In this document: one piece after another, positions 4,785 through 36,901 of the stretch | How positions within the stretch are numbered: the first letter of the stretch is position 1 | Layout of the letters: every line of letters begins with the position of its first letter | Assembly: GCA_028281765.1 (NCBI GenBank) | Contig: JANQJF010000001.1 | Span: 62,001-126,000, forward strand | Reading direction: 5' to 3' | DNA from: Planctomycetota bacterium | GTDB taxonomy: Bacteria; Planctomycetota; UBA1135; UBA2386 | Length of the DNA stretch: 64,000 nt | Notes under the pieces: generated by a model | What the model saw: the letters and a program-made list of their open reading frames with translations, nothing else | Database searches by the model: none | Told to the model about the DNA's origin: nothing | Made by a program: the position numbers and the translations under genes

Positions 4785-7622
4785 ATGACGCGAACCCGCT
4801 CATGGACCGCCCTCGCTCTCGCTGTCTCGTCGCTCGCGCTGACGTCCTGCAGCAGCTCCCACGAAGACACGGTCCGTGAACTCGTTTCGGTCGAGGAGAC
4901 AATCCTCGAGTTGTCCCCGGTGCTCGGCGGGTTCGGTCGCGCGATTCGCGACATCCAGATGCCCGACCCGGCGGCCGATGGGGATTGGAAGTCCCTGCTC
5001 CAGAGCGTCGCCTACTTCGAGAACGCGTCGTTCAAGATCGTCGACGGCGAGTTCGCGGACGGTGGCTTCGCGTCGGACGTGGTGTTCCACGCGTTTGCGC
5101 GCACTCGGAGCAAGTCCTGGCGGGCGATCGATGCACACGTCGACATGCTCTGGAAGCGCGAGGACCCGGAGCAGCCGTGGCAGGTCGCGGGCTGGAAGAC
5201 CCGCGACATGACCGCGAAGGACACGCCGCGCCGATTCTTCCGGGAGGTGTCGGGATTCGCGCTGCCCCTCGCTGACGACCACGAGATCGCGAGACGCTCG
5301 CACCACGAGGAGCACATCGTCCGGCTCTACCGCCAGGGCGAGACGAACCTCCCGCAGACGATCTTCGGGGACTACTTCCGGCCCGACGCCGCGGGGCAGC
5401 ACCCGGGGCTGTCGGTCGTCGATGTCGATCGAGACGGCTTCGACGATCTCTACGTCACGGTGCGCTACGGCCGCAATTTCCTGTTGCGCAATCGCGGCGA
5501 CGGCACGTTCGTCGAAGCGGCCGAGGAGTACGGTCTCGACGTCAGCGGTCTGTCGTCCTGCTCGATCTTCGCCGACTTCGACAACGACGGGGATGACGAC
5601 CTGTTTCTCGGCAGGACGTTCGAACGCAGCCGGCTCTACGAGAATCGGGACGGCCGCTTCGTCGAGCGCAGTTCCGACCTCGCGGCGGCGCCGCTGCCCT
5701 ACCTCGTGTCCTCGGCCGCAGCCGCGGACTACAACGGCGACGGCTTGCTCGACCTGTACGTGTGCGTCTACGGTCTGCCCGGCCGCGCGCTCCGCAATCA
5801 GGCGCTCGCGAACGCGATCCTGCCGGCCGGCCAGGCCGAAGAGGTCTTCCGCCGAGTGCGCGAAGGGAAGGCGTCCGACCTCTACCTCGAGGCGGTCGGC
5901 CCGCCCAACGTGCTCCTCGTCAACCGCGGTGGCCGCTTCGAGGTCGCCCCGGAGAGCGAGCAGGTGTCGCAGTGGCTGAACGCGCTTCAGGCGACGTGGG
6001 CCGACTTCGACGACGACGGAGATCCCGACCTCTACGTCTCCAACGACTACGCGCCCGACGCGCTCTTCCGCAACGACGGACCCGACGGCTTCACCGAGAT
6101 CACGCGCCAGACCGGCGGCGACGCGATGATGGGCTTCGGAATGGGCGCGTCGTGGGGTGACTACGACGGCGACGGCCGTCAGGACCTCTACGTCTCGAAC
6201 ATGTTCAGCAAGGCGGGCAAGCGCATCACGAAGCGGATCTCCGGGATCGACGCGCGCTTCGTGCGCTCCGCCGAAGGCAACCTGCTCTTCCGCAACGCCG
6301 GCGGCAAGTTCGAGCTCGTGTCGGGGCTCGAACCGCCGACACTCACGGTCGCCAAGGCCGGCTGGTCCTGGGGCGGCCAGTTCCTCGACGTCGACAACGA
6401 CGCTGACCTCGACCTCTACGTCTCGAGCGGTTACTACACCGCGCCGAGCGCGATAGCCACACAGATAGACCTTTGAAGCGAGTTCTGGCGCACGGTCGTG
6501 CGCACTGACGAAGGACTCGAAGACGGTTTCACCAAGGACGAACAGTGGGGTGATGCGGACGGTTTCGACGCGAGCAAGATGGCCGAAGTCGACGAGCTGC
6601 CGGACGGCCGGGTGATCCGACGCGCGCATTCGTTCAGCGGCAAGGAGCGCAACCGCCTGTTCCTCTCGGACAACGCGACTTCGTTTGCCGACATGTCCGC
6701 GATCTCGGGAGCCGACAGCGCCGCGGACAGCCGGTCGTTCGTCCTCTGGGACTACGACCGGGACGGCTGGCTGGATCTCGCCGTCGTCAACGCGAACGCG
6801 CCGCTGCTCGAGATCTATCGCAACGAGATGGCGCAGCTACCGGGCGCGAACGGTCGCTCCCTCGCGATTCGCTTTCTCGGCGGCAACACCAGCGATCGGC
6901 CGCAACCCGGACTTTCGTCGCGCAACGGCTACGGCGCGACGGTGACCGTGCGGGTCGGTGACAAGACGATCAAACGAGAGCACCGATGCGGCGAGGGTTT
7001 CGCCGCGCAGAACAGCGCGACGATGCTCGTCGGCATCGGCGCCGCCGACTCGGTCGAATCCGTCACCGTCGATTGGCCGTCCGGTCGCTCGCAGGTCATC
7101 CGGGACGTCGCCGCCGACTCCCTCCTCACCGCTGACGAGGCGAACGGGGAGTTTCAGACCGAGCCGTACTCCCGCTCGGTTCGTGCAGCCCGTCGCGTCA
7201 CGCGATCCGTCGCGCGACTCCCGTTGGGCGGATCCTCGTCGGGAGGCCAGCTGAAGGTCTACATGACGATGGCGACCTGGTGCGCGGCCTGCAAAGCCCA
7301 CCTCCCCCGGGTCGCGCGGCTCCGGCAGGTCGTCGGCAAGCGCGTCGACCTCATCGGTCTTCCGACCGACGAATCCGATGATCGCGCGAAGCTCGACGCG
7401 TACGTGCAGCAGTTTCAGCCCGCCTACGATCTCCGCACCGACCTCACCGCCGAAGAACGCGACCAGGTCCGCAACCTCCTGCGCACGGAGCTCGGACGCG
7501 AGGTGCTGCCGTCGAGCTTCGTCACGAACCGATCCGGCCAGGTGCTGCAGGTGTTCGAAGGGCTGCCCACGCTCTCCGACCTCGGCCGCCTGATCGACGC
7601 GCAGTCGGGCGTCGTGCGGTAG
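4785..7622 (+). CDS. FG-GAP / ASPIC-UnbV / thioredoxin lipoprotein with candidate selenocysteine 564
   Basis: Predicted 945-residue exported lipoprotein, read through an in-frame TGA at 6474-6476. Residues 1-22 form a signal peptide ending in the lipobox LTSC. From about residue 200 there are FG-GAP/VCBS repeats (DVDRDGFDDLYV, DFDNDGDDDLFLG, DYDGDGRQDLYVS, DVDNDADLDLYVS), then after the TGA another repeat (DYDRDGWLDLAVV), an ASPIC/UnbV domain (about 705-785) and a C-terminal thioredoxin-like domain with W-C833-A-A-C836. Both sides of the TGA are in the same frame and form one expected CRTAC1-like architecture. The TGA (residue 564) sits in QIDL-U-SEFWRTVV, right after the last N-terminal FG-GAP repeat, and is followed by a perfect hairpin (separate entry). 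I infer selenocysteine insertion; a nonsense mutation or two separate genes (the second from GTG 6498) are the alternatives. FG-GAP repeats suggest a surface beta-propeller; the CxxC domain suggests redox activity outside the cytoplasm. Confidence 0.78.
6474..6503 (+). promoter_or_regulatory. In-frame TGA (Sec564) plus bacterial SECIS-like hairpin
   Basis: The TGA at 6474-6476 is followed by 11 nt and then a perfect 6-bp stem, GCGCAC (6488-6493) paired with GTGCGC (6498-6503), closing a GGTC tetraloop (6494-6497). The apical loop begins 17 nt after the TGA. Loop sequence and spacing match the upper stem-loop of the E. coli fdhF SECIS, whose loop is also GGUC and whose upper stem also starts 11 nt after UGA. 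Confidence 0.72.
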
Positions 7623-7739
7623 GCGGGTCGACACTTCTCCGACGAAAGCCGGCGGCTGACTCTCGGGCATTCGTGAGAACTCGTAGCCTCGAATCCGACG
7701 TGGCCCTCCTGCGTACCTTCGGGGTCGGAATCGAGCACG

Positions 7740-7815
7740 TTGCCCGTCCATGGGCAGCCCACTAACCTCGACGACGAGTCGAACCCGGTCCCGGAGATCC
7801 AGGCGACGATGCTCG
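7740..7815 (+). pseudogene. Remnant of a beta-ureidopropionase gene 5' end
   Basis: The stretch translating as LDDESNPVPEIQATMLDK is clearly similar, at both protein and nucleotide level and in the same frame, to codons 16-33 of the intact beta-ureidopropionase gene at 8923 (LNDESKPVPEIQAAMLEK). Just before it, CCCACTAACCTC (about 7757-7768) also occurs in the upstream region of that gene (about 8847-8858). This looks like a partial copy with an internal deletion, now joined to the lipoprotein reading frame that follows. Confidence 0.6.
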
Positions 7816-8922: not shown

Positions 8923-9795
8923 GTGACGCGCATTCTCAAGGGCGGCTTGATCCAGTGCAGCAATCCGCTCAACGACGAGTCCAAACCGGTCCCCGAGATC
9001 CAGGCCGCGATGCTCGAGAAGCATCGGCCGTTTCTCGATCAGGCCGGTGAACGCGGCGTGCAGGTCCTGTGCCTGCAGGAGCTGTTCAACGCGCCCTACT
9101 TCTGCCCGAGCCAGGATCCGCGCTGGTACGACGCCGCCGAGCCGGTGCCCGGCCCGTGCACGGAGGTCATGGCGGAATACGCGAAGAAGTACTCGATGGC
9201 GATCGTCGTGCCGGTGTACGAGCGTGAGCAGGCCGGGGTGTACTACAACACCGCCGCCGTCATCGACGCCGACGGAAGCTACCTGGGCAAGTACCGCAAG
9301 ATCCACATTCCCCACACCTCGGGATTCTGGGAGAAGTACTTCTTCAAGCCCGGCAACCTCGGCTACCCCGTGTTCGACACGGCGTACGGCAAGGTTGGGG
9401 TCTACATCTGCTACGACCGCCACTTCCCGGAGGGCGCCCGTCTGCTGGGCCTAGCCGGCGCTGAAGTCGTGTTCAACCCGTCGGCGACGGTCGCGGGCCT
9501 TTCCCAGTATCTCTGGCGCCTCGAGCAGCCCGCCCACGCCGTCGCGAACGGCTACTATATGGGGTGCATCAACCGCGTCGGCACCGAGGCGCCTTGGAAC
9601 ATCGGCAAGTTCTACGGCAACAGCTACTTCGTCGACCCGCGTGGCAGCTTCATCTCCGAAGCCAGCGAGGACGACGACGAGCTGATCACGGCGGACATGG
9701 ACCTCGATGTGATCGAGGAGGTGCGGCGGATCTGGCAGTTCTATCGGGATCGCCGGCCCGAGACTTACGAAGACATGACGCGGCTCTTGCCGTGA
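8923..9795 (+). CDS. Beta-ureidopropionase (N-carbamoyl-beta-alanine amidohydrolase)
   Basis: Nitrilase-superfamily enzyme, 290 residues, catalysing the last step of reductive pyrimidine breakdown: N-carbamoyl-beta-alanine to beta-alanine, CO2 and NH3. The catalytic triad is visible as Glu53 (CLQELF), Lys126 (KYRKIHIPH) and Cys163 (YICYDRHFPEG). The GTG at 8923 is chosen because AGGAGG lies 4 nt upstream and because the protein then begins TRILKGGLIQCSNP, as expected for the family; the frame is open further upstream without protein-like sequence. It is the first gene of a five-gene operon in which every step of the pathway is encoded. A plant/animal-type N-terminal extension is absent, as usual in bacteria. 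Confidence 0.93.
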   Translation: MTRILKGGLIQCSNPLNDESKPVPEIQAAMLEKHRPFLDQAGERGVQVLCLQELFNAPYFCPSQDPRWYDAAEPVPGPCTEVMAEYAKKYSMAIVVPVYEREQAGVYYNTAAVIDADGSYLGKYRKIHIPHTSGFWEKYFFKPGNLGYPVFDTAYGKVGVYICYDRHFPEGARLLGLAGAEVVFNPSATVAGLSQYLWRLEQPAHAVANGYYMGCINRVGTEAPWNIGKFYGNSYFVDPRGSFISEASEDDDELITADMDLDVIEEVRRIWQFYRDRRPETYEDMTRLLP

Positions 9796-9808
9796 GTGGA
9801 GGCGCACC

Positions 9809-11185
9809 ATGGGCGTGCTGATCAAGAACGGACGCATCATCACGGCGATCGACGACTTCGTCGGCGACGTCTACTGCGATGGCACCACGATCGCCGCGGT
9901 GGGCCAAGACATCGACGCGAACTCCGGCGACGAGGTCATCGACGCGTCGGGCCAGCTCGTGTTTCCGGGTGGGCTCGACCCGCACGTGCACATGGAACTG
10001 CCGTTCATGGGCACCGTGTCCGCCGACGACTTCGAGACCGGCACGGCCGCAGGCGTCGCCGGTGGCACGACGTCGATCATCGACTTCGTGATCCCCGCGC
10101 GGAACGAAGACCTCATGGAGGCACTCGCCGCGTGGCACGACAAGGCGGGCAAAGCCGTGTCCGACTACGCGTTCCACATGGCGGTCACGTGGTGGGGTGA
10201 CAAGACCAAGGAGTGGATGCGCCGCTGCGTCGAGGAAGAGGGCATCACCTCGTTCAAGACGTTCATGGCCTATCGCGGCGCGATCGGCGTCGACGATCCG
10301 GAGCTGATCGAGGTCATGGCGCACGCCAAGACGCTCGGCGGGCTCGTCACCGTCCACGCAGAGCATGGCGACATGGTCGTCGAGCTGCAGAACAAGCTCT
10401 TCGGCGAAGGCAAGACCGGACCGAAGTATCACGCGCTCTCCCGCCCGCCCGCCGTCGAAGGCGAAGCGACCGCGCGCTCCCTGATGATGAGCAAGATGAC
10501 CGGGCAGCCGGTCTACATCGTGCACGTCACCTGCAAGGAGTCGATCGACGCGATGATCAGGGCGCGCATGGACGGCGTGAACGTCTACGGCGAGACCTGC
10601 ACGCAGTATCTGCTGCTCGACGACTCGGTCTACGACAAGCCCGACTTCGAAGGCGCGGCCTACGTGATGTCGCCGCCGATTCGGCCCAAGGGACACCAGG
10701 AGGTCCTCTGGAATGCGCTGAAGCTCGGCGCGCTGCACACGGTCGCGACCGACCACTGTCCGTTCAACCAGCACGGGCAGAAGGACCGCGGCAAGGACGA
10801 CTTCCGGGTGATCCCGAACGGTGCGGCCGGCATCGAGAATCGGATGGCTCTGCTCTACACCTACGGCGTACTCGAGGGCCGACTCGACCTCCACGAGTTC
10901 GTCGACCTGACGTCGACGCGTGCGGCGAAGATCTTCGGGATGTATCCGAAGAAGGGTGCGATCCGGGTCGGCGCCGACGCCGACATCGTCGTGTGGGACC
11001 CCGCCGCGAGCGGCGTGATCTCCGCGAATACCCACCACCACAACTGTGACCGCAGCATCTTCGAAGGATTCGAGACCAAGGGCGCGGCGTCCCACGTCGT
11101 CGTCGCGGGTCGAGTCCAGTACGCCGACGGCGACCTCAAGGTCGAGCGCGGCGCCGGAGAGTTCGTGCGGAGGACCGTCGGATGA
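9809..11185 (+). CDS. hydA: Dihydropyrimidinase
   Basis: 458-residue amidohydrolase-superfamily enzyme that opens 5,6-dihydrouracil or dihydrothymine to the N-carbamoyl beta-amino acid. Dinuclear metal ligands are visible: His59 and His61 (DPHVHME), the carboxylated Lys150 (SFKTFMAY), His in TVHAEHGD, His in YIVHVT and Asp in ATDHCPF. The substrate-binding segment SPPIRPKGHQ and the CTQYL motif also match the D-hydantoinase/dihydropyrimidinase family. It starts 13 bp after the ureidopropionase stop and its stop overlaps the next start as ATGA, so it is translationally coupled. The neighbours favour a pyrimidine rather than a hydantoin substrate. Confidence 0.94.
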   Translation: MGVLIKNGRIITAIDDFVGDVYCDGTTIAAVGQDIDANSGDEVIDASGQLVFPGGLDPHVHMELPFMGTVSADDFETGTAAGVAGGTTSIIDFVIPARNEDLMEALAAWHDKAGKAVSDYAFHMAVTWWGDKTKEWMRRCVEEEGITSFKTFMAYRGAIGVDDPELIEVMAHAKTLGGLVTVHAEHGDMVVELQNKLFGEGKTGPKYHALSRPPAVEGEATARSLMMSKMTGQPVYIVHVTCKESIDAMIRARMDGVNVYGETCTQYLLLDDSVYDKPDFEGAAYVMSPPIRPKGHQEVLWNALKLGALHTVATDHCPFNQHGQKDRGKDDFRVIPNGAAGIENRMALLYTYGVLEGRLDLHEFVDLTSTRAAKIFGMYPKKGAIRVGADADIVVWDPAASGVISANTHHHNCDRSIFEGFETKGAASHVVVAGRVQYADGDLKVERGAGEFVRRTVG

Positions 11186-12507
11186 CCAATCAGAAAGCCG
11201 CGAGCCGCGCCGAAGACGTCCGTGCGAAGCACGCGAAGTACCTGTTCCCGTCCGTCGCGAACTACTATCAGGAGTCCGTGGTGCTCGACGAGGGCGATGG
11301 ACTCCGGCTGCGCGACATCGACGGCAAGGAGTACCTCGACTTCTTCGGCGGCATCCTCACCGTCTCGATCGGGCAGTGCCACCCCGAGGTCACGACGGCA
11401 CTCAAGGCCCAGGTCGATCGCCTCGGCCACGTGTCGACGCTCTACCCGAACGTGCCGATCGTCGAGCTCGCGGAGCGAATGGCGCGCATCACCCCGGGGA
11501 AGCTCTCGAAGAGCTTCTTCACGGCGTCGGGTACCGAAGCCGACGACACCGCGGTCGTGCTCGCGCAGGTCTACACCGGAGCCCAAGAGATCATCGCGCT
11601 GCGTCACGGCTACTCCGGCCGTGGCGTGCTGTCGCAAGCGCTCTGCGGCCACGGGACGTGGCGCGCGACGCCGACCCAGGTCGCGGGCGTCAAGCACGCG
11701 GTGTCTCCGTACTGCTACCGCTGCCCGTTCGGCCAGACCTACCCGTCGTGCAAGATGAAGTGCGCGACGGACGTCGAGGAGCTGATCCGCACGACGACGA
11801 CCGGCCGCATCGCCGGCATCCTCGCCGAGCCGATCCAGGGAGTCGGTGGATTCGTCGTGCCGCCGCCCGAGTATTTCGAGATCGTCGTCGACATCGTGCG
11901 CAAGTACGGAGGCGTGTTCATCTGCGACGAGGTGCAGACCGGCTTCGGTCGCACGGGCACGAAGATGTTCGGGATCGAGCACTGGGGCGTCGAGCCCGAG
12001 ATCATGACGATGGCGAAGGGCATCGCGAACGGGATGCCGCTCGCGGCGACCGTCGCGACCGACGAAGTCGCCGACTCGTTCCAGGCGCTCTCGATCTCGA
12101 CCTTCGGCGGCAACCCCATGTCGTGCGCCGCCGCCAACGCGACGCTCGAAGTCATCGAACGCGACGACCTGCCGACCAACGTCGAAAACCAGGGCGCGCG
12201 ACTGCGCGCGGGGTTCGAGGCGCTTCAGCGCAAGTATCCGCGCAAGATCGGGGACGTTCGCGGGAAGGGCCTCATGCAGGCCATCGAAATCGTTGCGAAC
12301 GAGGAGGCCGGCGATCGCACGCCGGATCCCCAGTCCACGCTTCGACTGTTCGAAGAGACGCGCAAGCGCGGTCTGCTGATCGGCAAGGGCGGCCTCGAGG
12401 GCAACGTGGCTCGCGTCGCGCCGCCGATGAACGTCACCGCCGACGAAATCGACGAAGCGCTGAAGATCTTCGGCGAGGCCTTCGCCGCCATGGAGTCGGG
12501 TTCTTGA
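11182..12507 (+). CDS. Class III (omega) aminotransferase, probable beta-alanine/beta-aminoisobutyrate transaminase
   Basis: 441-residue PLP enzyme of fold type I. The Schiff-base lysine is Lys279 in TMAKGIANGMPLAA; upstream are FICDEVQTGFGRTG with the PLP-binding Asp and SFFTASGTEADDTAV with the phosphate-binding region. Similarity is to the AGXT2-like group, which includes beta-alanine-pyruvate and alanine-glyoxylate transaminases. Position inside the pyrimidine operon suggests it removes the amino group from beta-alanine or beta-aminoisobutyrate to give (methyl)malonate semialdehyde, the substrate of the dehydrogenase at 2085. It has a Cys-rich patch (CYRCPFGQTYPSCKMKC) unusual for a transaminase, possibly a metal-binding or disulfide insertion. 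Start overlaps hydA by ATGA; its stop overlaps the TTG start of preT. Confidence 0.9.
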   Translation: MTNQKAASRAEDVRAKHAKYLFPSVANYYQESVVLDEGDGLRLRDIDGKEYLDFFGGILTVSIGQCHPEVTTALKAQVDRLGHVSTLYPNVPIVELAERMARITPGKLSKSFFTASGTEADDTAVVLAQVYTGAQEIIALRHGYSGRGVLSQALCGHGTWRATPTQVAGVKHAVSPYCYRCPFGQTYPSCKMKCATDVEELIRTTTTGRIAGILAEPIQGVGGFVVPPPEYFEIVVDIVRKYGGVFICDEVQTGFGRTGTKMFGIEHWGVEPEIMTMAKGIANGMPLAATVATDEVADSFQALSISTFGGNPMSCAAANATLEVIERDDLPTNVENQGARLRAGFEALQRKYPRKIGDVRGKGLMQAIEIVANEEAGDRTPDPQSTLRLFEETRKRGLLIGKGGLEGNVARVAPPMNVTADEIDEALKIFGEAFAAMESGS

Positions 12508-13817
12508 CGCCGTATCCGATTTCAGGCGACCGGCTGGAGGGCGAGTTCGCCGACAAGTATCCGCCGCTGACGAAGACCGAAGCGACCTTCGAGGCGACGC
12601 GCTGCCTGTACTGCTACGACGCTCCGTGCATCCAGAGCTGCCCGACTTCGATCGACATTCCGACGTTCATCCGGAAGATCGCGACCGGCAATCTGCGGGG
12701 CTCGGCACGCACGATCCTCGAAGCGAACTTGCTCGGCGCGAGCTGCGCCCGGGTCTGTCCCGTCGAGGTGTTGTGCGAATCGACGTGTGTCTACGTCGGC
12801 TGGGATCGCGAGGCGATTCCGATCGGTCGACTGCAGCGCTACGCGATGGACGAAGGCGCGTCACCCGACCTCCTGCCGAAACGCTCCTCGACGGGCCGCA
12901 AGATCGCCCTGGTCGGCGCGGGCCCTGCCTCCCTCGCGTGCGCGGGAACACTCGCGCTGCTCGGTCACGAGGCGATCCTCTACGAGAAGGACCCGCTGCC
13001 CGGCGGCCTCAACACGACGGGCGTCGCGCCGTATAAGCTGCGCGTCGAGAGCGCACTCGACGAAGTCGAGTTCGTCCAGTCGCTCGGCGTCGAGATCCGC
13101 ACGGGCGTCACGATCGGTGTGGACATCACCGCCGCCGATCTCCTCGCGCAGCACGACGCGGTCTTCCTCGGCCCGGGGCTCGGGAGCGATTCGAAGCTCG
13201 GTGTTCCGGGTGAAGACGGCCCCGGCGTCCTCGGTGCGGTCGCGTGGATCCGTGCGATGAAGACGGATCCGGAAGCGACGCTCGATGGCGTCCGACGAGC
13301 CCTTGTTGTCGGCGGTGGCAACACCGCGATCGACGTCGCGCGCGAGCTCAAGGGACTCGGCATCGAGTCCGTAACGATGAGCTATCGCCGGGAACGGGCC
13401 GCGATGTCCGCCTACGACCATGAACTTCGCCCCGGCCTCGATGAGGGTGTCGTCCTCCTCGACGGCACCGCCGTCACTGAGATCCGCCGAGACGGCGGTG
13501 CGCCTCACTCTGTTCGCCTCGTCAACACCGAGGACGGTCGCCCCACCGATTCGGAGTGCGGACTTCTCCCGATCGACCTCGTCGTCATCGCGATCGGGCA
13601 AGCCAAGCTCCGAGGCTTGGCCGAGCAGTTCGAGAACGTGACCTGCGACGACCGGGGACGGATCGAGGTCGACGCCAACTCGTTCGCAACGAACAACCCA
13701 AAGGTGTTCGCCGGCGGCGACGCGATCAACGGCGGCAAGGAAGTCGTCAACGCCGTGCACGATGGCCAGGCCGCGGCGCGCGCGATCCACGCGATGCTCG
13801 GAGGTGACGATGCCTGA
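12504..13817 (+). CDS. preT: NAD(P)H-dependent dihydropyrimidine dehydrogenase, subunit PreT
   Basis: FAD/Fe-S electron-input subunit of bacterial dihydropyrimidine dehydrogenase, 437 residues, GltD-like. It begins with a [4Fe-4S] module (CLYCYDAPCIQSCP, then CARVCPVEVLCESTC), followed by the FAD-binding Rossmann motif LVGAGPASLACAG near residue 140, a second nucleotide-binding motif VVGGGNTAIDVA near 275, and the C-terminal FAD motif VFAGGDAINGG. The TTG at 12504 overlaps the TGA of the aminotransferase and gives a PreT-like N-terminus; the frame upstream of it is antisense-quality sequence over the aminotransferase gene. It overlaps preA by 8 bp. Together they reduce uracil or thymine to the 5,6-dihydro form. 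Confidence 0.93.
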   Translation: MTPYPISGDRLEGEFADKYPPLTKTEATFEATRCLYCYDAPCIQSCPTSIDIPTFIRKIATGNLRGSARTILEANLLGASCARVCPVEVLCESTCVYVGWDREAIPIGRLQRYAMDEGASPDLLPKRSSTGRKIALVGAGPASLACAGTLALLGHEAILYEKDPLPGGLNTTGVAPYKLRVESALDEVEFVQSLGVEIRTGVTIGVDITAADLLAQHDAVFLGPGLGSDSKLGVPGEDGPGVLGAVAWIRAMKTDPEATLDGVRRALVVGGGNTAIDVARELKGLGIESVTMSYRRERAAMSAYDHELRPGLDEGVVLLDGTAVTEIRRDGGAPHSVRLVNTEDGRPTDSECGLLPIDLVVIAIGQAKLRGLAEQFENVTCDDRGRIEVDANSFATNNPKVFAGGDAINGGKEVVNAVHDGQAAARAIHAMLGGDDA

Positions 13818-15153
13818 TCTCTCGGTCGACTTCTGCGGCATCCACAGCCCGAACCCGTTCTGGCTCGCGTCCGCACCACCGACCAACAGCGGCCCCCAGA
13901 TCGAACGCGCGTTCGACGCGGGCTGGGGCGGCGCCGTGTGGAAGACGCTCGGCAATCCGATCGTGAACGTTTCGAGTCGCCTCGGCGGGCTCGACTACGG
14001 CGGCCAGCGCCTGATGGGCCTGAACAACATCGAGCTGATCACGGACCGTCCGCTCGAAGTCAACTTCCGCGAGATGGCGGAGTGCAAGAAGCGCTACCCG
14101 AAGCACGCGCTGATCTCCTCACTGATGGCTGAGGGCAAAGAGGAGTGGCGTGAACTCATCCGTCGCTCTGAAGACGCCGGCGCGGACGGTCTCGAGCTGA
14201 ACTTCGGCTGCCCGCACGGCATGTGCGAGCGCGGTATGGGTTCGGCCGTCAGTCAGGAACCGAAGGTCCTGGAGGAGCTCGTCCACTGGGTCGTCGAGAT
14301 GGCGAACATCCCGGTGATCTCGAAGCTCACGCCGAACATCACCGACGTGCGCGAGCCGGCTGCGGCCGCACGCCGCGCGGGCTCACACGCGGTGTCTTTG
14401 ATCAACACGATCCAAAGCCTCATGGGCGTCGATCTCGACACGCTGTCGCCGCTCCCGAGCGTGAACAAGCAGTCGAGCCACGGCGGCTTCTGTGGCCCCG
14501 CGGTCAAGCCGATCGCGCTGCGCATGGTCGCGCAGCTCGCGCGGGAGGACGACTTCGGCATTCCGATCAGCGGCATCGGTGGGATCTCCAACTGGCGTGA
14601 CGCGGCCGAGTTCTTGGCGCTCGGATCGACGACGGTGCAGGTCTGCACCGCGGTCATGCACTACGGCTACCGCATCGTCGACGACATGATCGAGGGGCTC
14701 GACGAGTATCTTCGGGAGAAGGGCATGGACAGCGTGAACGAGCTGATCGGTGCCGCCGTGCCTGCGTTCCAGGAGTGGGGCGATCTCGACCTCAACTACC
14801 ACGTCGTCGCGGAGATCGACGCGGACAAGTGCATCGGCTGCGATCTCTGCCACGTCGCATGCCACGACGGCGCGCATCAGTGCATTCACATGCCGGGCAC
14901 CAAGGCCATCGCCGGCCACGACGCGCCGATGGCCGAGCGAGCCGCCGAACTCCACGCGTCGTCCAACGGCTCCTATCGCGTGCCGTGGGTCGACGAAACC
15001 GAGTGCGTTGGCTGCAACCTGTGCACGCTCGTCTGCCCGGTCGATGGCTGCATCACGATGGTCGAGAAGCGACGCGGCCCCGAGAAGGACACCTGGAACA
15101 TGCGCGTCGCCGACGGCCGGGACCACGTTCCGGGTGGGCTCGGCCAAAGCTGA
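13810..15153 (+). CDS. preA: Dihydropyrimidine dehydrogenase, catalytic subunit PreA
   Basis: 447-residue FMN/TIM-barrel subunit that reduces uracil or thymine, fed with electrons by PreT. The barrel resembles class 1B dihydroorotate dehydrogenase and the C-terminal half of mammalian DPD: NFGCPHGMCERGMGS, SKLTPNITDV, SSHGGFCGPAVKPIALR and PISGIGGISNW are all recognisable. The C-terminus has two ferredoxin-type [4Fe-4S] motifs, CIGCDLCHVACHD (about residue 340) and CVGCNLCTLVCP (about 400). It is the last gene of the operon; the next gene is convergent 24 bp away. Confidence 0.94.
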   Translation: MPDLSVDFCGIHSPNPFWLASAPPTNSGPQIERAFDAGWGGAVWKTLGNPIVNVSSRLGGLDYGGQRLMGLNNIELITDRPLEVNFREMAECKKRYPKHALISSLMAEGKEEWRELIRRSEDAGADGLELNFGCPHGMCERGMGSAVSQEPKVLEELVHWVVEMANIPVISKLTPNITDVREPAAAARRAGSHAVSLINTIQSLMGVDLDTLSPLPSVNKQSSHGGFCGPAVKPIALRMVAQLAREDDFGIPISGIGGISNWRDAAEFLALGSTTVQVCTAVMHYGYRIVDDMIEGLDEYLREKGMDSVNELIGAAVPAFQEWGDLDLNYHVVAEIDADKCIGCDLCHVACHDGAHQCIHMPGTKAIAGHDAPMAERAAELHASSNGSYRVPWVDETECVGCNLCTLVCPVDGCITMVEKRRGPEKDTWNMRVADGRDHVPGGLGQS

Positions 15154-15177: not shown

Positions 15178-16575
15178 CTACGGGCGGATGCCACGCTCCT
15201 CGAGTGTCCCGGGAATCGTGTTGTCGAGCAGCAGAGCGGTGAACGCCCCCACCGCCATGCCCGTCTTGCCGATCGTGTTCAGCATGTCGGACAGCCAACC
15301 CCAGCTGCCACCGAACGAGAGCAAATGCTCGTCGTTCGCGAAGTACTCCGGCACCGACAGCCCCATGAACATCGCGAACCCGAGGATGAACAGGTTGCGC
15401 GCCGAGTTCAGATCCACAAACTGCAGGTTCGAAAGGCCGACCGCCGCGATCATGCCGAACATCGTGCAGTACATCCCGCCGACGACCGGCTGGGGAATCG
15501 TCGTGAACAACCCGCCGAACTTGCCGAACATCGCGAGCACGATCATGAGGATCGCGCCTGCCTGCACGACGCGGCGGCTGCCGACGCGCGTGAGCCCGAT
15601 CGCGCCGATGTTCTCGCTGTAGGACGTCGTGCCGTTGCCGGTGCCGAAGATGCCGGCGAGCATGCAGCCGACGCCTTCCGTGCCGATCCCGCGATTGACG
15701 GTCCGTGCGTCCGGATGCCCGGCCCCGGACATCCGTGCGCAGGCGTAGTAGTCGCCGACGGACTCGACGATCGACGCGAGGTAGCCCGCGAGCATGCCGA
15801 CGATGGCCGGCAATACGAACTGCGGAGCTCCCCACTGGAACGGCATCGGGACCTGGATCCACGGCGCCGCGTCGAGCCGCGCGGTCGACACGTGCGCCGG
15901 GTGCCCTTCGGGGAACACGCCGCTCCACGTCAGAAGCGCTGCGACTCCCCAGGCGCCCACCAGACCGAGCAGCACCGGGAACAGCTCGATCATCCGATGC
16001 GACCGCCGCAGGTACTGACTGAACAGCACGATCAGCACGATCGTCAGGCCCCCGATACCCCAGTGTCGCCCCGCCTCTGGCGCGCCGAGCTTGAAGAGCG
16101 CGAGCCCGATCAGCGCGATCGTCGGCGCGATCGTGATCGGCCCGACGAACCGCAGCAGCCGTCCGACGAGTCCGCCGTACCCGACGAACATCTCGAACGC
16201 GGCACCGACGATCACCGCGCCTTGGATGTGCTGGAGCTTGACCTCGTGGCCGGCCTCCGCGACGCCGGCCATCCCGCAGATTACGATGGCCGGCGTCAGG
16301 AACGAGAACGTCCCACCCTGCACGAGCGGCAGGCGATTGCCGAACGTCGTCTGCAGCAGGGTCGCGAGCCCGCTGACGAAGAACAGAGTCCCGATGAGCA
16401 AACCCAGCTCGGCCGGCTTGTCGTCGAGCCCCAAGGGCTTGCTGAGAATCAGCGGGATCGCGACCGTCGACCCGAACATCGTCAGGTAGTGCTGCAGCCC
16501 GAGCAGCAACGTCTCCTGCGGCGGCGGAACGTCGTCGATGCCGTAGATCAGGTCGTGCTTGCGGCTCTCGGTCAT
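15178..16575 (-). CDS. NCS2-family nucleobase permease (uracil/xanthine type)
   Basis: 465-residue polytopic membrane protein with about 12-14 hydrophobic segments. Family signatures are visible: QHYLTMFGSTVAIPL near the N-terminus, LVQGGTFSFLTPAI in TM3, SIVESVGDYYACARMSGA in TM8 and GNGTTSYSENIGAIGLTRV in TM10. NCS2 transporters are nucleobase:cation symporters; the convergent pyrimidine-degradation operon suggests uracil or thymine as the substrate, although the motifs alone do not separate uracil from purine carriers. The ATG at 16575 overlaps the stop of the upstream glycosyltransferase (ATGA), so it is probably expressed from that gene's promoter. Confidence 0.9.
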   Translation of the reverse strand: MTESRKHDLIYGIDDVPPPQETLLLGLQHYLTMFGSTVAIPLILSKPLGLDDKPAELGLLIGTLFFVSGLATLLQTTFGNRLPLVQGGTFSFLTPAIVICGMAGVAEAGHEVKLQHIQGAVIVGAAFEMFVGYGGLVGRLLRFVGPITIAPTIALIGLALFKLGAPEAGRHWGIGGLTIVLIVLFSQYLRRSHRMIELFPVLLGLVGAWGVAALLTWSGVFPEGHPAHVSTARLDAAPWIQVPMPFQWGAPQFVLPAIVGMLAGYLASIVESVGDYYACARMSGAGHPDARTVNRGIGTEGVGCMLAGIFGTGNGTTSYSENIGAIGLTRVGSRRVVQAGAILMIVLAMFGKFGGLFTTIPQPVVGGMYCTMFGMIAAVGLSNLQFVDLNSARNLFILGFAMFMGLSVPEYFANDEHLLSFGGSWGWLSDMLNTIGKTGMAVGAFTALLLDNTIPGTLEERGIRP

Positions 16576-18243: not shown

Positions 18244-19320
18244 TCAGCGCTTGCCGACGAGCTTGCCTTTGCCGGCGCGTCGGTAGAGCCAGACCCAGCC
18301 GTGGCGCTCGCGCGACTTGCCGGAGCCCGTGGCCGAGTTGTCGCCGACGAGCAGGTCCATGTCCCCATCGCCGTCGTAGTCGAACACGAACACCTGTGCC
18401 CGTGCGCCCTGCTTCACGCTCGCGACTTGGCCCTTCTTCTTCGAACGCTTCGACTTCTTGGTCTTCGTCTTGCCGGGTTCGACGAGCGGCGCCGCCTTGC
18501 GGAGCTTGAGCTTCTTCTTGCTCTTGCCGCGGAACCAGTAGATCGCGCCGTTCTGGCTGCCGGAGATCAGGTCGGTCTTGCCGTCGCCGTCCCAGTCGGC
18601 AGCCACTGGCATCGCGTATCCGCCGGGCACCTTGAGGTCGAGGTCGACGAGCTTCTCGGAGAACGACAGCTGCGTCGCGCTGCCCTTGTTCTCCCGCACG
18701 TAGAGACCGCCGGAGTTCGTGCCGATGATCAGGTCCAAATCGCCGTCGCCGTCATAGTCGTACGGCAGCGCCGAGTAGGCCCGCTCCCCCGGGCCATCGC
18801 CGGAAGTGTGCTCGCGCGTGTCCGCGTCCCAATACCGCCCGGTGTGCATCTTGCCGCCGCGACGATCCTTGAGCATGACCGGCTTCGCCAAGCCGTCCGC
18901 ACTGCCGTAACACACGTAGGGCACTCCCTCGTAGCAGCCGGAGACGATGTCGGTGTGGCCGTCACCGTTCAGGTCCGCAAACTGCGGACTGATGCCGACG
19001 CATCACCAGTTGTGGATCCGAATCGGATCGCCACCCGCCTGCAGCGGCTTACCCTCCTGGAACTTCGGCTCTTGACGCGTGCCCACGTTCTTGAAGAACC
19101 GGATGTTGCCGCGGAACGAGCTGACGAGCAGATCCGGTAGCCCGTCGCCGTCGTGGTCGCGCATGATCGGACCGGCGTGTCCGATGTCCTTGCCGGTGTC
19201 GATCGGGGCGCCGTCCGCTTCGATGCGAACCGGAGCCTCGAGTTTGCCGCCTCGTTGGGCCGCGAGATCAGCGCCGGCGACCAGGCTGGCCGTCAGCGCG
19301 AGAATGGACGCTGCTCTCAT
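18244..19320 (-). CDS. Secreted FG-GAP/VCBS repeat protein with candidate selenocysteine 106
   Basis: Predicted 358-residue exported protein read through an in-frame TGA at 19005-19003. The ATG at 19320 has GGAGG 8 nt upstream and gives a signal peptide ending near GADLAAQ; an ATG 24 nt upstream is less likely. FG-GAP repeats occur before and after the TGA (MRDHDGDGLPDLLVS; ADLNGDGHTDIVSG; PYDYDGDGDLDLIIG; ADWDGDGKTDLISG; FDYDGDGDMDLLVGD). The TGA codes residue 106 in IHNW-U-C-VGISPQF, directly before a Cys. It falls between two repeats, in a region that is otherwise continuous, and is followed by a strong hairpin (separate entry). A Lys-rich linker (about residues 275-290) interrupts the last repeats. 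I infer Sec insertion; if TGA stops translation, the product would be a 105-residue fragment with a single repeat. The function is unknown; a U-C pair suggests selenenylsulfide redox chemistry or metal binding. Confidence 0.73.
18970..19005 (-). promoter_or_regulatory. In-frame TGA (Sec106) plus SECIS-like hairpin
   Basis: Reading the minus strand, TGA (19005-19003) is followed after 11 nt by a stem CAGTCCGCA paired with TGCGGAC-C-TG, with one bulged C and a GTT apical loop (five-base AGTTT if the last A-T opens). Nine base pairs form; the loop starts 20 nt after the TGA and begins with G. This fits the published bacterial SECIS constraints, although the loop is not GGUC. Confidence 0.6.
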
Positions 19321-27140: not shown

Positions 27141-27148
27141 GGCGGGCG

Positions 27149-29615: not shown

Positions 29616-29657
29616 GCAGGAGTCACCCTTGTAACCCCGCCAGGCCCCGGCGCCACC

Positions 29658-30845: not shown

Positions 30846-30936
30846 GGTGTCGTTTCTCCGAGGTTGCGGTCGGCACGGAGCGCTGCCTGGAAAAGACGAC
30901 ACGCGCACCTCGAACCGACCTGGATCGGCAGGGATG

Positions 30937-31032: not shown

Positions 31033-31178
31033 AGGAATGCTTCGGTGACCCCAGCGGGCGGAGGCGGCGTCACCGGAGTGGCTTTTCGAGAAAAACTGCC
31101 GTTCCCGCGACGAATCCCCCGAGCGGTGCCGTCTGCCTTCTCGAACACCGAAACCGGCCCAAGAGACGACCGAGAACG

Positions 31179-32098: not shown

Positions 32099-32102
32099 GG
32101 AT
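32097..32102 (+). promoter_or_regulatory. -10-like TAGGAT, leaderless start
   Basis: TAGGAT ends 8 nt before the sigma-factor ATG at 32111; its first two bases lie within the right end of the MITE-like element. Confidence 0.35.
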
Positions 32103-32110
32103 GACTCTCG

Positions 32111-33197: not shown

Positions 33198-33203
33198 GCA
33201 GCG

Positions 33204-33548
33204 CTACCCGAAGTTGAGCCCACACTCCGGGCACCGCGTCGTGTCCTTCGTCGAGAACGCCGTCATGCACGCCGGACACGTCGTCTCCTCGGCGTCGAAG
33301 TCGACGACCGCTTCCGCGCTGCGTCGCTCTTCTTCGCTCAGAGCTTTCGCGTCGTGCTCGGCGAGAACCGCACGTGCGCGATCGAGATCGGGACCCGCGA
33401 CCGCGAGCCAGCCTCGAATGCTTCAAGCATTGGCCTTGGCGCCGGGCTCGCGCACCAGTTCGGCCGCGACGCCCGACTCCGACAACACGTTGCGCGCCCG
33501 CTCGAGATCTTTGCTGCCGCCCTGCAGCAGGGGAACCCAGTCACTCAT
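33204..33548 (-). CDS. DUF2007-like / zinc-ribbon protein with candidate selenocysteine 42
   Basis: Predicted 114-residue protein read through an in-frame TGA at 33425-33423. Residues 1-65 resemble the DUF2007 alpha/beta fold (LERARNVLSESGVAAELV, then WLAVAGPDLDRARAVL); the TGA is residue 42 in GAKANA-U-SIRGWLAV, between the two halves of that domain. Residues 90-114 form a zinc ribbon, CPAC-x11-CPEC, ending GLNFG before a TAG stop. Without readthrough the product is 41 residues and the downstream half has no good start of its own. A SECIS-like hairpin with a GGUC loop follows the TGA. ATG 33548 has CATAAT 8 nt upstream and no Shine-Dalgarno. It is a cytoplasmic protein by sequence; the role of DUF2007 is unknown. 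This gene is too fragmented by its TGA to be seen by ordinary gene finders. Confidence 0.72.
33392..33425 (-). promoter_or_regulatory. In-frame TGA (Sec42) plus SECIS-like hairpin with GGUC loop
   Basis: On the minus strand the TGA (33425-33423) is followed by a 7-pair stem, GGCTCGC with GCGGGTC (two G-U pairs), closing a GGTC tetraloop. The loop starts 20 nt after the TGA. Same loop as at 6494 and as E. coli fdhF. Confidence 0.68.
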
Positions 33549-33556
33549 GGCGACGG

Positions 33557-33562
33557 ATTATG
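33557..33562 (-). promoter_or_regulatory. -10-like CATAAT, leaderless start
   Basis: CATAAT on the minus strand, 8 nt before the ATG at 33548; no Shine-Dalgarno present. Confidence 0.4.
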
Positions 33563-33594
33563 CCCGCGACCGGATGCAACGCCAGGGGCCCCGC

Positions 33595-34428: not shown

Positions 34429-34514
34429 GGTACGCTCGTCGGAGCGTGAATTCCATCGACACGAGCAGAAGAGGTGTTGAGCCTTTGGACACCTTCGGCT
34501 CGATTTGAGACACG

Positions 34515-35852
34515 TTGGATCCCGCCACGCATCCCTTCCGCGAGCACCCCCACCGCACGACGGCATTGCTGTCGGTGCCGGTGTTCTTCTCGCTGATCGC
34601 CGAGCCGATCGCGGGGCTCGTGGATACGGCCTTCGTAAAGGAACTCGGGGAAGCGCCGGCAGCGGCACTCGGCGTCGGCACGGTTCTCTTGTCGAGCGTG
34701 TTCTGGATCTTCAACTTCCTCGGCATTGGCACGCAGACCGAAGTCGCTCGGCTGCTCGGGGCCGGCGAGCGAGCCAGGGCGCGCCAGATTGCGTCGCTGG
34801 CGATCGCGCTCGCGGTCGGATTCGGGACTCTTGTCGCGCTCGGCGTCGCCGTGGCGGCGGGCCCACTCGCCGAGCTCCTGGGTGCGTCAGCCGAAGCCCA
34901 CGATGCCGCGGCCTTGTACGTCCGTATCCGCGTCGTCGGCGCACCGGCCGTGCTCCTGATGACGACGGGATTCGGTGCGCTCCGGGGTCTCCAGGACATG
35001 CGAAGTCCGCTCTGGATCGCCGTGTTCGCGAACGCACTCAACGTCTTGCTCGACTGGTGGCTGATCTTCGGCGGTGGCCCCGTTCCCGCGCTCGGCATCG
35101 CCGGGGCAGCGTGGGCGACCGTCATCGCGCAGTGGGCGGCCGCGGGGCTCGCGCTGTACCTGGTCGGTCAGCGGCTCGGTTGGACTCGCCGATTCCATCT
35201 CAAGGACGCGCACCTGCTGCTCGTGGTCGGCGCGGATCTGTTCCTGCGCACGGGCTTACTGACGCTGTTCATCCTGACCTCGACACAAACGGCCACGAGC
35301 ATCTCCGACGGCGCCGGCGCGGCCCACAACGCGATTCGGAACGTCTGGATGTTTACGGCCCTCTCACTCGACGCGTATGCCGCGACGGCGCAGAGCCTCG
35401 TCGGGTTCTTCCGCGGATCCGGTCGGCCTCGACTGATGCGCCGGGTTGCGAGCGTCAGCTGCCAACAGAGCCTCCTCGTGTCCGTAGTCCTGCTGATCGC
35501 AATGCTCGCGACCACCGACCTCGTCGCGGACGCACTGGTTCCCCTGTCGGCGCATTCGGTGTTCGCGGCCGCGTGGTGGTACGCCGCGTTGTTCCAGCCG
35601 CTGAACGCGATTGCGTTCGCGACCGACGGCATCCACTGGGGCACCGCGGACTTCCGCTACCTGCGCAACGCGATGATCTTCGCGAGCGGCGCGGGCATCG
35701 CCGGACTACTCCTCATCGACGTCGATCGCGACGGCGCACTCACCACGGTGTGGATCGTGACCGGCGGGTGGATCCTCCTCCGCGCTGCGCTCGGCTTCGT
35801 GCGCATCTGGCCCGGCAGCGGGCCGTGGGCCCGCGACGCTACGACTTCTTGA
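34515..35852 (+). CDS. MATE-family efflux transporter (DinF-like)
   Basis: 445 residues with 12 predicted helices in two halves. The N-terminus ALLSVPVFFSLIAEPIAGLVDTAFVKELG is characteristic of DinF-type MATE exporters, including the Asp of the first half; GIGTQTEVARLLGAG and GALRGLQDMRSPLW also match. These exporters use Na+ or H+ gradients to expel organic cations or other compounds. TTG 34515 is the only sensible start. The 3' end overlaps the convergent selenoprotein candidate by 14 bp. Confidence 0.9.
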   Translation: MDPATHPFREHPHRTTALLSVPVFFSLIAEPIAGLVDTAFVKELGEAPAAALGVGTVLLSSVFWIFNFLGIGTQTEVARLLGAGERARARQIASLAIALAVGFGTLVALGVAVAAGPLAELLGASAEAHDAAALYVRIRVVGAPAVLLMTTGFGALRGLQDMRSPLWIAVFANALNVLLDWWLIFGGGPVPALGIAGAAWATVIAQWAAAGLALYLVGQRLGWTRRFHLKDAHLLLVVGADLFLRTGLLTLFILTSTQTATSISDGAGAAHNAIRNVWMFTALSLDAYAATAQSLVGFFRGSGRPRLMRRVASVSCQQSLLVSVVLLIAMLATTDLVADALVPLSAHSVFAAAWWYAALFQPLNAIAFATDGIHWGTADFRYLRNAMIFASGAGIAGLLLIDVDRDGALTTVWIVTGGWILLRAALGFVRIWPGSGPWARDATTS

Positions 35853-36888
35853 CGCGCCGACGCACGGCTTCCACGGCGTCCCACGCGGCGAGCCCCTTGT
35901 CGATGACGACCGGCCAGCCCGCCTTCGGGTGCGCCCGCACGTCGGCCAGCAGCTCGCGCTGCCGTGGCGACAGCAGCTCGACGCTCACCCCGTTTCGCAG
36001 GCGCGCGTTGATCCGCACCGCCTGCGCCTCGGTCATCGGCACGTGCCGGAGCTCGGTCCGCCCGAGGTAGTATTTCGGGTCCTTGTCCGCGCGCAGTTTG
36101 CCCGACACCTTGGCGACGTCCCTGCCCCAGATGTCCCCGGCCGACTTGCACTGCGCGTCGTCGAGCGGGTGCACCGACCAGCCGCTGCCCTTCGCGCGCA
36201 CCGTTTTCGCGATCTTCTCGTAGCTCGTGACCTTGGGGTCGAACTTCACTTCGACGACCTCGCGCGGCCCCATCCACGCCGCCTTGGTCGCGACGACACC
36301 ATCGAGGAGGCCGAACTCGACCTCTCCGACCCAGAATCAACCCATGCCGAAGATGGCGGTTTCGACGCCGCGCGCGTGGGCGCGCTCCTCGTCGACGAGG
36401 AGCCGCAACCAGCCGGGCACCGATTTCTCCGCCTTCGACAACGCGCGCACCATGCCGTCGGCGAGGGCACCCACGGTCCAGCGGTTCGCGACCTTGTCGA
36501 CGAGCTCGGTCCGGTCGTGCTCCATGATCCGCACGACCGGGTTGTTCCAGGCGCGCTCCCCGAACGACTTCAAGACGCGTTCGTCAGCGTCGCCCTTCGT
36601 GTTGTTGTAGACGCACGCCGGAACGAACAGCGATTCGGCGGCATCGACGATCAGCGGGTGGCTCAAGACCTGAGTCCCATAGTCGACGCAGGTCCTTCAA
36701 CCGGGGACTTCCTGGAAGAGCAGCAGGATCGGCCTGTCGACCTGCTTCGCGGTCTCGACAGCAGCGTCGAAGTCACGCTGCCAGGCGATCGCGCCGAGCT
36801 CTACAGGAGTGTTCGATTTCGTCGCGGACTGTGCCGAGCATCCCGCCGAGGCGAGGACTGCGGCGATCGGAATGAGCTGCCATCGCAT
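35839..36888 (-). CDS. Thioredoxin-like / MsrA-like lipoprotein with two candidate selenocysteines (64 and 184)
   Basis: Predicted 349-residue exported protein with two in-frame TGAs (36699-36697 and 36339-36337); all three segments are in one frame. A signal peptide with lipobox-like SAGC (Cys17) is followed by a thioredoxin-like domain (about 35-160: AWQRDFDAAVETAKQVDRPILLLF) whose active site reads EVPG-U64-R-T-C67, a UxxC motif. The second domain starts ETAIFGMG-U184-FWVGEVEF, which is the MsrA GCFWxxE motif with the catalytic Cys replaced, and continues GVVATKAAWM, EVVEVKFDPKVTSYEKI as in MsrA. The rest (about 235-349) is not standard MsrA. Both TGAs are followed by SECIS-like hairpins. 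MsrA repairs methionine-S-sulfoxide; a fused thioredoxin-like domain could recycle it, here in the cell envelope. Start 36888 has TATGCT 7 nt upstream; an ATG at 36900 is the alternative. Confidence 0.83.
36304..36339 (-). promoter_or_regulatory. In-frame TGA (Sec184, MsrA motif) plus SECIS-like hairpin
   Basis: After TGA (36339-36337) the minus strand has GAGGTC paired with GGCCTC (one G-U pair) around a GAGTTC loop, with two more outer pairs past a bulged C. The loop starts 18 nt after the TGA and begins with G. Confidence 0.62.
36660..36699 (-). promoter_or_regulatory. In-frame TGA (Sec64, UxxC) plus SECIS-like hairpin
   Basis: After TGA (36699-36697) the minus strand has CTCA paired with TGAG around a GGTCT loop, extended by GG/CC across a bulged A, giving six base pairs. 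The loop starts 26 nt after the TGA. The loop context CA-GGUC-U is very close to the fdhF element. Confidence 0.66.
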
Positions 36889-36895
36889 ACCCGGC

Positions 36896-36901
36896 AGCAT
36901 A
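36896..36901 (-). promoter_or_regulatory. -10-like TATGCT, leaderless start
   Basis: TATGCT on the minus strand ends 7 nt before the ATG at 36888, favouring that start over the ATG at 36900, which overlaps the hexamer. Confidence 0.38.

What the first reader, a model, noticed from the sequence alone, without database searches (positions are those of the whole stretch)
4785..36900. Cluster of four candidate selenoprotein genes carrying five in-frame TGA codons
Seen: four genes (4785-7622, 18244-19320 minus, 33204-33548 minus, 35839-36888 minus) are each continuous in one frame except for TGA codons at 6474, 19005, 33425, 36699 and 36339. Every interruption is TGA, none is TAG or TAA. Each TGA is followed by a hairpin whose loop starts 17-26 nt downstream and begins with G. 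One TGA replaces the catalytic Cys of an MsrA motif and another makes a UxxC. Established: bacterial SECIS elements lie just after UGA, with an apical loop of 3-14 nt, a G in the first two loop bases and 16-37 nt from UGA to loop. Inference: this lineage makes several selenoproteins not previously recognised, mostly exported, in FG-GAP, DUF2007-like and Trx/MsrA families.
Basis: partly seen in the sequence, partly recalled or inferred. Interest (0 to 1): 0.95.

Follow-up and report, generated by a model that had tools for sequence, protein, structure and literature searches.

The report
Propeller selenoproteins missed by annotation
Four bacterial genes in this stretch carry five in-frame UGA "stop" codons that recur at the same protein positions in many related genomes and are predicted to insert the rare amino acid selenocysteine; two of the four are likely members of propeller-protein families not yet catalogued as selenoproteins.

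Summary
In detail: four genes, five in-frame TGAs. The genome has tRNA-Sec, SelA, SelB and a TGA-bearing SelD. At the loci examined TGA sits at the same residue in 29 of 30 (CRTAC1-like propeller), 30 of 30 (FG-GAP propeller), 28 of 29 (small zinc-ribbon protein) and 21 and 17 of 30 (Trx/MsrA-like protein, two sites). Across relatives, a 5-bp hairpin with a G[GU] loop (rule set after seeing the data) follows 103 of 125 TGA sites, 3 of 44 non-TGA sites and 4-5% of other codons. Two proteins are near known selenoproteins: VPGUxxT type 2 (here with a second Sec) and DG-like. The two propeller families are absent from the 2026 table of 119 families. One has a vicinal Sec-Cys pair, with TGA in 90 of 93 matches of a phylum-wide draw. 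In the other, Sec takes a position that is mostly Glu/Asp/Ser, rarely Cys, in homologues; 29 of 29 Sec forms have a CxxC 256-299 residues downstream, 0 of 21 TGA-less paralogues do. I infer a built-in CxxC-to-Sec redox relay. Selenium insertion and the relay are untested.

The parts
4785..7622 (+). Predicted lipoprotein selenoprotein (945 aa): CRTAC1-like FG-GAP propeller + UnbV/ASPIC + C-terminal ResA/StoA/TlpA-like domain with WCAAC
   Evidence: lipobox by eye
6474..6476 (+). In-frame TGA, residue 564 (DLUSEFWR)
   Evidence: U in 29 of 30 loci, Glu in 1
6488..6503 (+). SECIS-like hairpin, 6 bp, loop GGTC 17 nt after TGA
7281..7292 (+). CxxC (residues 833-836) of the thioredoxin-like domain that co-occurs with Sec564
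18244..19320 (-). Predicted exported FG-GAP selenoprotein (358 aa; five-bladed-propeller-like model) with vicinal Sec-Cys pair; 18244-18246 is its TGA stop
   Evidence: signal peptide by eye
19003..19005 (-). In-frame TGA, residue 106 (NWUCVG)
18973..18989 (-). SECIS-like hairpin, 6 bp, loop AGTTT 19 nt after TGA, with compensatory changes among relatives
33204..33548 (-). Small selenoprotein (114 aa) with C-terminal zinc-ribbon-like end; sub-cut-off relative of (seleno)protein DG; one relative weakly like Se_S_carrier
33423..33425 (-). In-frame TGA, residue 42
   Evidence: U in 28 of 29 aligned loci, Cys in 1
33392..33409 (-). SECIS-like hairpin, 7 bp, loop GGTC 20 nt after TGA
35839..36888 (-). 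Double selenoprotein (349 aa) of the VPGUxxT type 2 family: Thioredoxin_7-like domain (VPGUxxC) + MsrA-like stretch (GUFW)
36697..36699 (-). In-frame TGA, residue 64 (VPGURTC)
   Evidence: U in 21, Cys in 9 of 30 loci
36662..36674 (-). Candidate SECIS hairpin, 4 bp, loop GGTCT 26 nt after TGA; marginal
36337..36339 (-). In-frame TGA, residue 184 (MGUFW, MsrA-like)
   Evidence: U in 17, Cys in 13 of 30 loci
36307..36324 (-). SECIS-like hairpin, 7 bp, loop AGTT 19 nt after TGA

Best explanation
The five TGA codons are predicted to be decoded as selenocysteine by the genome's own SelA/SelB/SelD/tRNA-Sec system, each likely directed by a hairpin just downstream, giving four selenoproteins of which two propeller proteins would be uncatalogued selenoprotein families. 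Shown: the codons, their conservation, the machinery genes, the comparative hairpin signal, the co-occurrence of Sec564 with CxxC. Inferred: selenium insertion itself; that the CRTAC1-like lipoprotein works as a two-part redox device in which the C-terminal ResA/TlpA-like CxxC domain reduces an oxidised Sec564 of the propeller (no other Cys tracks Sec564, so the CxxC is the likely resolving partner); that the FG-GAP protein uses its adjacent Sec-Cys as a vicinal selenenylsulfide/selenolthiol pair; that the VPGUxxC/GUFW protein couples a thioredoxin-like Sec to an MsrA-like Sec in the cell envelope; that the small protein is cytosolic and handles a thiol or selenide. Least certain is what the propellers act on; an oxidised extracytoplasmic sulfur or peroxide species is my best guess.
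For: Machinery: tRNA-Sec 73.6 bits, SelB 365 bits, SelA 489.9, SelD 359.3 with one TGA. tRNA-Sec in 110 of 121 genomes; SelB matches in all 11 others, 9 over cut-off. TGA conservation: FG-GAP, 108 of 108 matches in 65 of 121 genomes have one TGA; 90 of 93 matches in 74 of 294 genomes of a phylum-wide draw hold one (15 of the 93 are from the same order); U at the site in 38 of 39 loci looked at. CRTAC1-like 29 of 30 loci. Small protein 71 of 81 matches hold TGA, 28 of 29 aligned loci U. VPGUxxT: U/U 17, U/C 4, C/C 9 of 30: only U or C at either site. SECIS: at least 5 bp with (N)G[GU] loop 16-21 nt after the codon at 28/29, 30/30, 23/28, 8/21, 14/17 TGA sites, at 3/21, none available, 0/1, 0/9, 0/13 non-TGA sites, and at 4-5% of other codons; in the FG-GAP hairpin 3 of 6 pairs show changes on both sides, 99.4% of cells pair, no shuffle of 500 as high. 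Relay: one CxxC 256-299 residues downstream in 29 of 29 Sec forms, none in 21 TGA-less paralogues; Cys at 833 in 100% of 29 Sec forms and 9% of 98 forms with neither Sec nor Cys.
Against: No selenium or peptide data. At residue 564 Cys is rare: 119 Glu, 1 Cys in the 120 listed homologues of one subfamily (18 clusters: 17 Glu, 1 Cys) and 4 Cys of 92 aligned in the other, where Asp, Ser and Glu prevail. The hairpin rule was set after looking at the data. 36699 lacks a clear SECIS: 8 of 21 under that rule, energies no better than controls (p 0.052). Cys sites at 184 also beat energy controls (p 2.4e-4). On the tree, 7 independent pairs differing in Sec give CxxC the same way in 5.5 on average, never the opposite, median p 0.0625; counting Sec or Cys, 10 pairs, 6.9 same, 0 opposite, median p 0.0156. 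CxxC also occurs in some forms with neither Sec nor Cys (10 of 119 and 8 of 88); of the 4 Cys forms of the second subfamily 2 lack it and 1 (P0330) has a doubtful motif; Cys833 is present in only 40% of 5 Cys forms. Two of the 21 CxxC-less paralogues (L290, L305) end before any C-terminal domain. The propeller substrate is unknown.
Confidence: 0.82

Rival explanations
1. Sec564 of the CRTAC1-like protein is a metal ligand (or structural residue) replacing Asp/Glu/Ser, not a redox centre; the CxxC domain serves something else.
For: Homologues have Asp, Glu, Ser, Asn at the site, residues that can bind metals; the FG-GAP repeats carry many conserved Asp, which in FG-GAP repeats bind Ca2+ (recalled).
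Against: 29 of 29 Sec forms against 0 of 21 TGA-less paralogues have the CxxC; Cys833 is among the columns that best track Sec, and the only Cys column that does so strongly.
Confidence: 0.2
2. UGA is read by another route (near-cognate read-through or reassigned code, e.g. Trp or Cys), or is a regulated stop with re-initiation.
For: The product is not measured; 11 of 121 genomes gave no tRNA-Sec match although several hold TGA forms, e.g. G014, G040.
Against: These 11 all have SelB matches, 9 over cut-off; after the top four, no other TGA of the window shows coding on both sides above a minimum score of 0.225; TGA pairs with Cys at four of five sites; G[GU]-loop hairpins track TGA.
Confidence: 0.05
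3. Sequencing errors, frameshifts or pseudogenes.
For: The window's genome is a 129-contig assembly, 88.8% complete.
Against: Same codon at the same residue in independent genomes within long open frames.
Confidence: 0.01

Closest known systems
VPGUxxT family thioredoxin-like (seleno)protein, type 2 (NCBIfam NF041383; OS_HP5)
   Same: 35839-36888 passes the model (358.4 bits, cut-off 275); Sec in VPGU.
   Different: A second TGA at the MsrA-like GUFW site in 17 of 30 loci; the 2026 catalogue lists one Sec (PMC13188914, Table 1).
Zinc ribbon-containing (seleno)protein DG (NCBIfam NF049953)
   Same: 33204-33548 and 5 of 5 relatives scanned match over profile positions about 59-172.
   Different: Scores 51-72 bits, below the cut-off of 130; the catalogue gives motif GUxG for DG, here AUS and xU[GS] in relatives.
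Cartilage acidic protein 1 (CRTAC1), PDB 9etn; UnbV/ASPIC FG-GAP proteins
   Different: I recall no Sec in that family; here Sec and a fused ResA/TlpA-like domain.
ResA / StoA / TlpA thiol-disulfide oxidoreductases
   Same: Profile of alignment A2 matches StoA 3erw (1.3e-5) and ResA 1st9 (2.4e-5) at the C-terminal domain, with CxxC.
   Different: Fused to a propeller that carries Sec; Pfam Thioredoxin_8 22.0 bits, below its cut-off of 27.
MsrA selenoproteins (PF01625)
   Same: GUFW aligned to the start of the MsrA profile, where the review gives GUFWG/H for Sec-MsrA.
   Different: Only the first 32 of 153 profile positions match; TIGR00401 25.8 bits against 108.1.

Membership tests
Bacterial selenoprotein | Sec machinery (selA, selB, selC, selD) in the genome | tested here: met
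Bacterial selenoprotein | In-frame TGA conserved at the same residue in homologues | tested here: met
   all five sites
Bacterial selenoprotein | Cys at the TGA position in Sec-less homologues (residues 106, 42, 64, 184) | tested here: met
   106: 20 CC of 25 aligned public homologues; 64 and 184: 9 and 13 Cys loci of 30; 42: 1 Cys locus only
Bacterial selenoprotein | Cys at residue 564 in Sec-less homologues of the CRTAC1-like protein | tested here: not met
   mostly Glu/Asp/Ser; Cys in 1 of 120 and 4 of 92 aligned. A habit of known selenoproteins, not a requirement for Sec insertion
Bacterial selenoprotein | bSECIS hairpin (loop 3-9 nt, G in first two bases, 16-37 nt, MFE <= -7.5; PMC13188914 Fig. 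2 legend) at 6474, 19005, 33425, 36339 | tested here: met
   meaningful only with the comparative counts, since 995 of 1770 codons also meet it
Bacterial selenoprotein | the same bSECIS model at 36699 | tested here: inconclusive
   -7.2 against -7.5; 8 of 21 relatives under the stricter rule
Bacterial selenoprotein | Selenium in the protein | not testable with these tools
   needs 75Se or mass spectrometry
NF041383 VPGUxxT type 2 | curated score cut-off 275 | tested here: met
   358.4 bits
NF049953 DG | curated score cut-off 130 | tested here: not met
   71.7 bits; five relatives 51.2-72.3
DUF2007 (Pfam) | Pfam match | tested here: not met
   13 families listed for P0003 at E <= 1, DUF2007 not among them
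MsrA | full catalytic domain | tested here: inconclusive
   PF01625 25.7 bits (cut-off 23.7) but only positions 1-32 of 153; TIGR00401 below cut-off
UnbV/ASPIC FG-GAP (CRTAC1-like) | FG-GAP repeats and UnbV_ASPIC domain | tested here: met

The most novel reading that the evidence does not exclude
In CRTAC1-like propeller proteins of this (inferred planctomycete) lineage, selenocysteine sits where homologues have Glu, Asp or Ser and comes and goes together with a fused TlpA/ResA-like CxxC domain: a selenoprotein family in which Sec is not traded for Cys but arises or is lost as one half of a built-in thioredoxin-selenol relay. Beside it, an FG-GAP propeller family with a vicinal Sec-Cys pair occurs across the phylum almost only in its Sec form, with up to four copies per genome.
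Probability: 0.5. Interest if true: 0.85.

Novelty: new variant of a known kind. Interest (0 to 1): 0.76.

Why it matters
Selenoprotein finders lean on Sec/Cys pairs; deep-Sep's authors state that proteins without Cys homologues may be filtered out (PMC12013277, passages). The CRTAC1-like family shows how such a gene escapes, and its co-varying CxxC gives a direct test of function. The FG-GAP family appears cut in two by annotation: 95 of the 120 best public homologues do not reach the site, and most are 197-260 aa pieces, too long to be the 105 residues before the TGA. Both would enlarge the selenoproteome of a phylum whose name (planctomyc-) does not occur in the main text of the 2026 review, and give extracytoplasmic propellers a plausible redox role.

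Tried and rejected
Hairpins as single-sequence evidence: rejected, since a loose rule finds a hairpin at 83-90% of random in-gene positions (groups of more than one locus) and 995 of 1770 codons meet the published rule. Record-size selenoproteome: no claim. A codon scan of the window plus 60 stretches (1,222,024 bases in all, about 1.16 million outside the window) gave 15 TGA and 14 TAG candidates at its threshold; it caught only two of the window's own five sites (36339, 19005), so its sensitivity is low, and it missed SelD. Of the 13 TGA candidates outside the window most read to me like gene boundaries, one thioredoxin-like (L239:12964) is convincing, one (L277:13988) possible. A profile search of the same DNA found no further TGA-bearing member of the four families, apart from a weak row in L249 with eight TGAs whose better-scoring part has none, which I read as over-extension. 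The four-gene cluster looks denser than the sampled rest, but the sample is small and the window was chosen for the find. Gene neighbours gave no functional hint. The phylum (Planctomycetota) is inferred from names of near public relatives, not proved. The structure tool gives no coordinates, so the Sec-CxxC distance was not measured. Row drops: one search's list is truncated; of its TGA-less rows as I counted them (21 'none', 1 TAA) 21 of 22 were examined (G089:C181 covers only residues 69-353). TGA rows beyond the 30 loci were not checked for position. L127 was left out of A6, L140 did not align at the site. Alignment A2 used 8 of the Sec loci and 9 public homologues beside the window. Not in print: the listings of searches (20 of 56 listed) show no title or abstract on an FG-GAP, VCBS, CRTAC1 or beta-propeller selenoprotein; only four papers were opened. 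Haft & Tolstoy 2025 is not held, Deng et al. 2026 was not looked up (known only from passages of PMC13188914), and supplements (e.g. S9 Table of PMC4807772, Planctomycetes P1/P2) could not be read, so earlier mention there is possible.


Full report
Observation. The four genes read open with TGA=U and hold exactly the five internal TGAs named. Codon statistics trained on the window rank 36339, 6474, 19005 and 36699 as the top four of 297 TGAs whose 40-codon flanks hold no stop, 33425 as tenth.

Machinery. The window is G000:C25:62001-126000 of an 8.78 Mb, 129-contig genome. It has tRNA-Sec (73.6 bits, over the Rfam cut-off), SelB (365 bits), SelA (489.9) and, next to SelA, a SelD whose frame holds one TGA (again SelD). 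Of 121 genomes (own plus 120 relatives) 110 have tRNA-Sec; the other 11 all have SelB matches, 9 over the cut-off.

Coupling to CxxC. All 29 Sec forms have exactly one CxxC between the site and the stop, 256-299 residues downstream; none of the 21 TGA-less paralogues has one, though two of them end before a C-terminal domain (Fisher p 1.5e-14, uncorrected for kinship). Public forms: Glu 10 of 119 with CxxC, Cys 1 of 1; second subfamily: Cys 2 of 4, one of these doubtful, others 8 of 88, and 9 of 9 fragments that begin after the site, which I take for Sec forms. On a quick tree of 132 rows built without the site, Sec changes at least 9 times and CxxC 14; in 7 independent pairs CxxC goes with Sec in 5.5 on average and never against (median p 0.0625), with Sec or Cys in 6.9 of 10, never against (median p 0.0156). 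Cys833 is present in 100% of 29 Sec forms, 9% of 98 others and 40% of 5 Cys forms; Cys836 in 100%, 43% and 60%; no other Cys tracks Sec; Ser618 does (100% against 18%) and less so Phe474 and Phe262. Inference: the CxxC domain is the reductant and resolving partner of Sec564. The tree is unrooted, so gain and loss cannot be told apart.

Small protein (33204-33548, U42). 81 of 121 genomes have one match each: 70 with one TGA, 1 with two, 10 with none, some of which start beyond or near the site. Of 30 loci 29 align: 28 U, 1 Cys. It matches NF049953 (DG) below cut-off, as do five relatives; of two relatives scanned one weakly matches Pfam Se_S_carrier (19.7 bits, cut-off 25).

VPGUxxC/GUFW protein (35839-36888, U64 and U184). 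33 of 121 genomes have 35 matches: 17 with two TGA, 6 with one, 12 with none (three of the TGA rows have another stop as well). In 30 loci the pair of sites is U/U in 17, U/C in 4, C/C in 9 and never C/U. It passes NF041383, a known selenoprotein family; the second Sec is not in the catalogue entry.

SECIS. The published model (PMC13188914, section 5) is met by four of five window sites and by 995 of 1770 codons of the same genes, so it does not discriminate. Best-hairpin energies at TGA sites beat in-gene controls at four sites (p 1e-6, 9.3e-10, 5.2e-8 and 7.6e-6 for residues 564, 106, 42 and 184) and not at 64 (p 0.052); Cys sites at 184 also beat controls (p 2.4e-4), Cys sites at 64 do not (0.59). 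With a stricter rule set after seeing the data (at least 5 bp, loop (N)G[GU], 16-21 nt) TGA sites score 28/29, 30/30, 23/28, 8/21 and 14/17 (564, 106, 42, 64, 184), non-TGA sites 3/21, none available, 0/1, 0/9 and 0/13, other codons 4-5%. The FG-GAP hairpin has 99.4% of cells paired with changes on both sides in 3 of 6 pairs; 184 and 42 show weaker covariation, with two such pairs each, a number that 188 and 49 of 500 shuffles reach; 564 has only 66.7% of cells paired in one register, and a slid register scores as well, as two loop lengths are mixed.

Novelty. Table 1 of the 2026 review (119 families/subfamilies; section 7 parts 1-2 of 3 seen) has no FG-GAP, VCBS, CRTAC1 or UnbV entry; NCBIfam gave no selenoprotein model for the two propeller proteins of the window and, for pieces of the second subfamily, only a sub-cut-off WAxxUGC match at the redoxin domain of P0245. 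Papers: of PMC13188914 the abstract, passages and sections 5, 7 (parts 1-2) and 10 were seen; of PMC4807772, PMC12013277 and PMC1088965 passages only. Sources I could not read are named under Tried and rejected.

Noticed in passing
L239:12784-13203 (+), TGA at 12964 (G000:C49): Another likely selenoprotein: signal-peptide-like start, thioredoxin domain (PF00085 27.0 bits, cut-off 23.5) with TIPGURDC.
   Followed up: partly
L277:13988 (G000:C76): Possible C-terminal Sec (GTUSGYC, under 30 codons before the next stop) in an exported-looking protein; may equally be the true stop.
   Followed up: no
L018 (G000:C9:81125-82045): SelD itself has an in-frame TGA near its start (ASGUAAK), beside selA; selB and tRNA-Sec lie on other contigs.
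   Followed up: partly
window 8923-15153 (+) and 15178-16575 (-): Operon-like run of carbon-nitrogen hydrolase, amidohydrolase, class-III aminotransferase, Fer4_20/Pyr_redox and DHO_dh/Fer4 genes beside a xanthine/uracil permease: looks like reductive pyrimidine breakdown.
   Followed up: no
window 39078-40925 (-): A second FG-GAP/UnbV protein without TGA; the Sec site does not align in it.
   Followed up: partly
window 46854-48937 (-): UPF0261 protein next to a phosphoenolpyruvate-hydrolase-like gene.
   Followed up: no
P0007, P0011 (public homologues of the FG-GAP protein): The Sec-Cys pair is replaced as a pair by Trp-Ser or Ser-Ser in close relatives of 353 and 345 aa.
   Followed up: no
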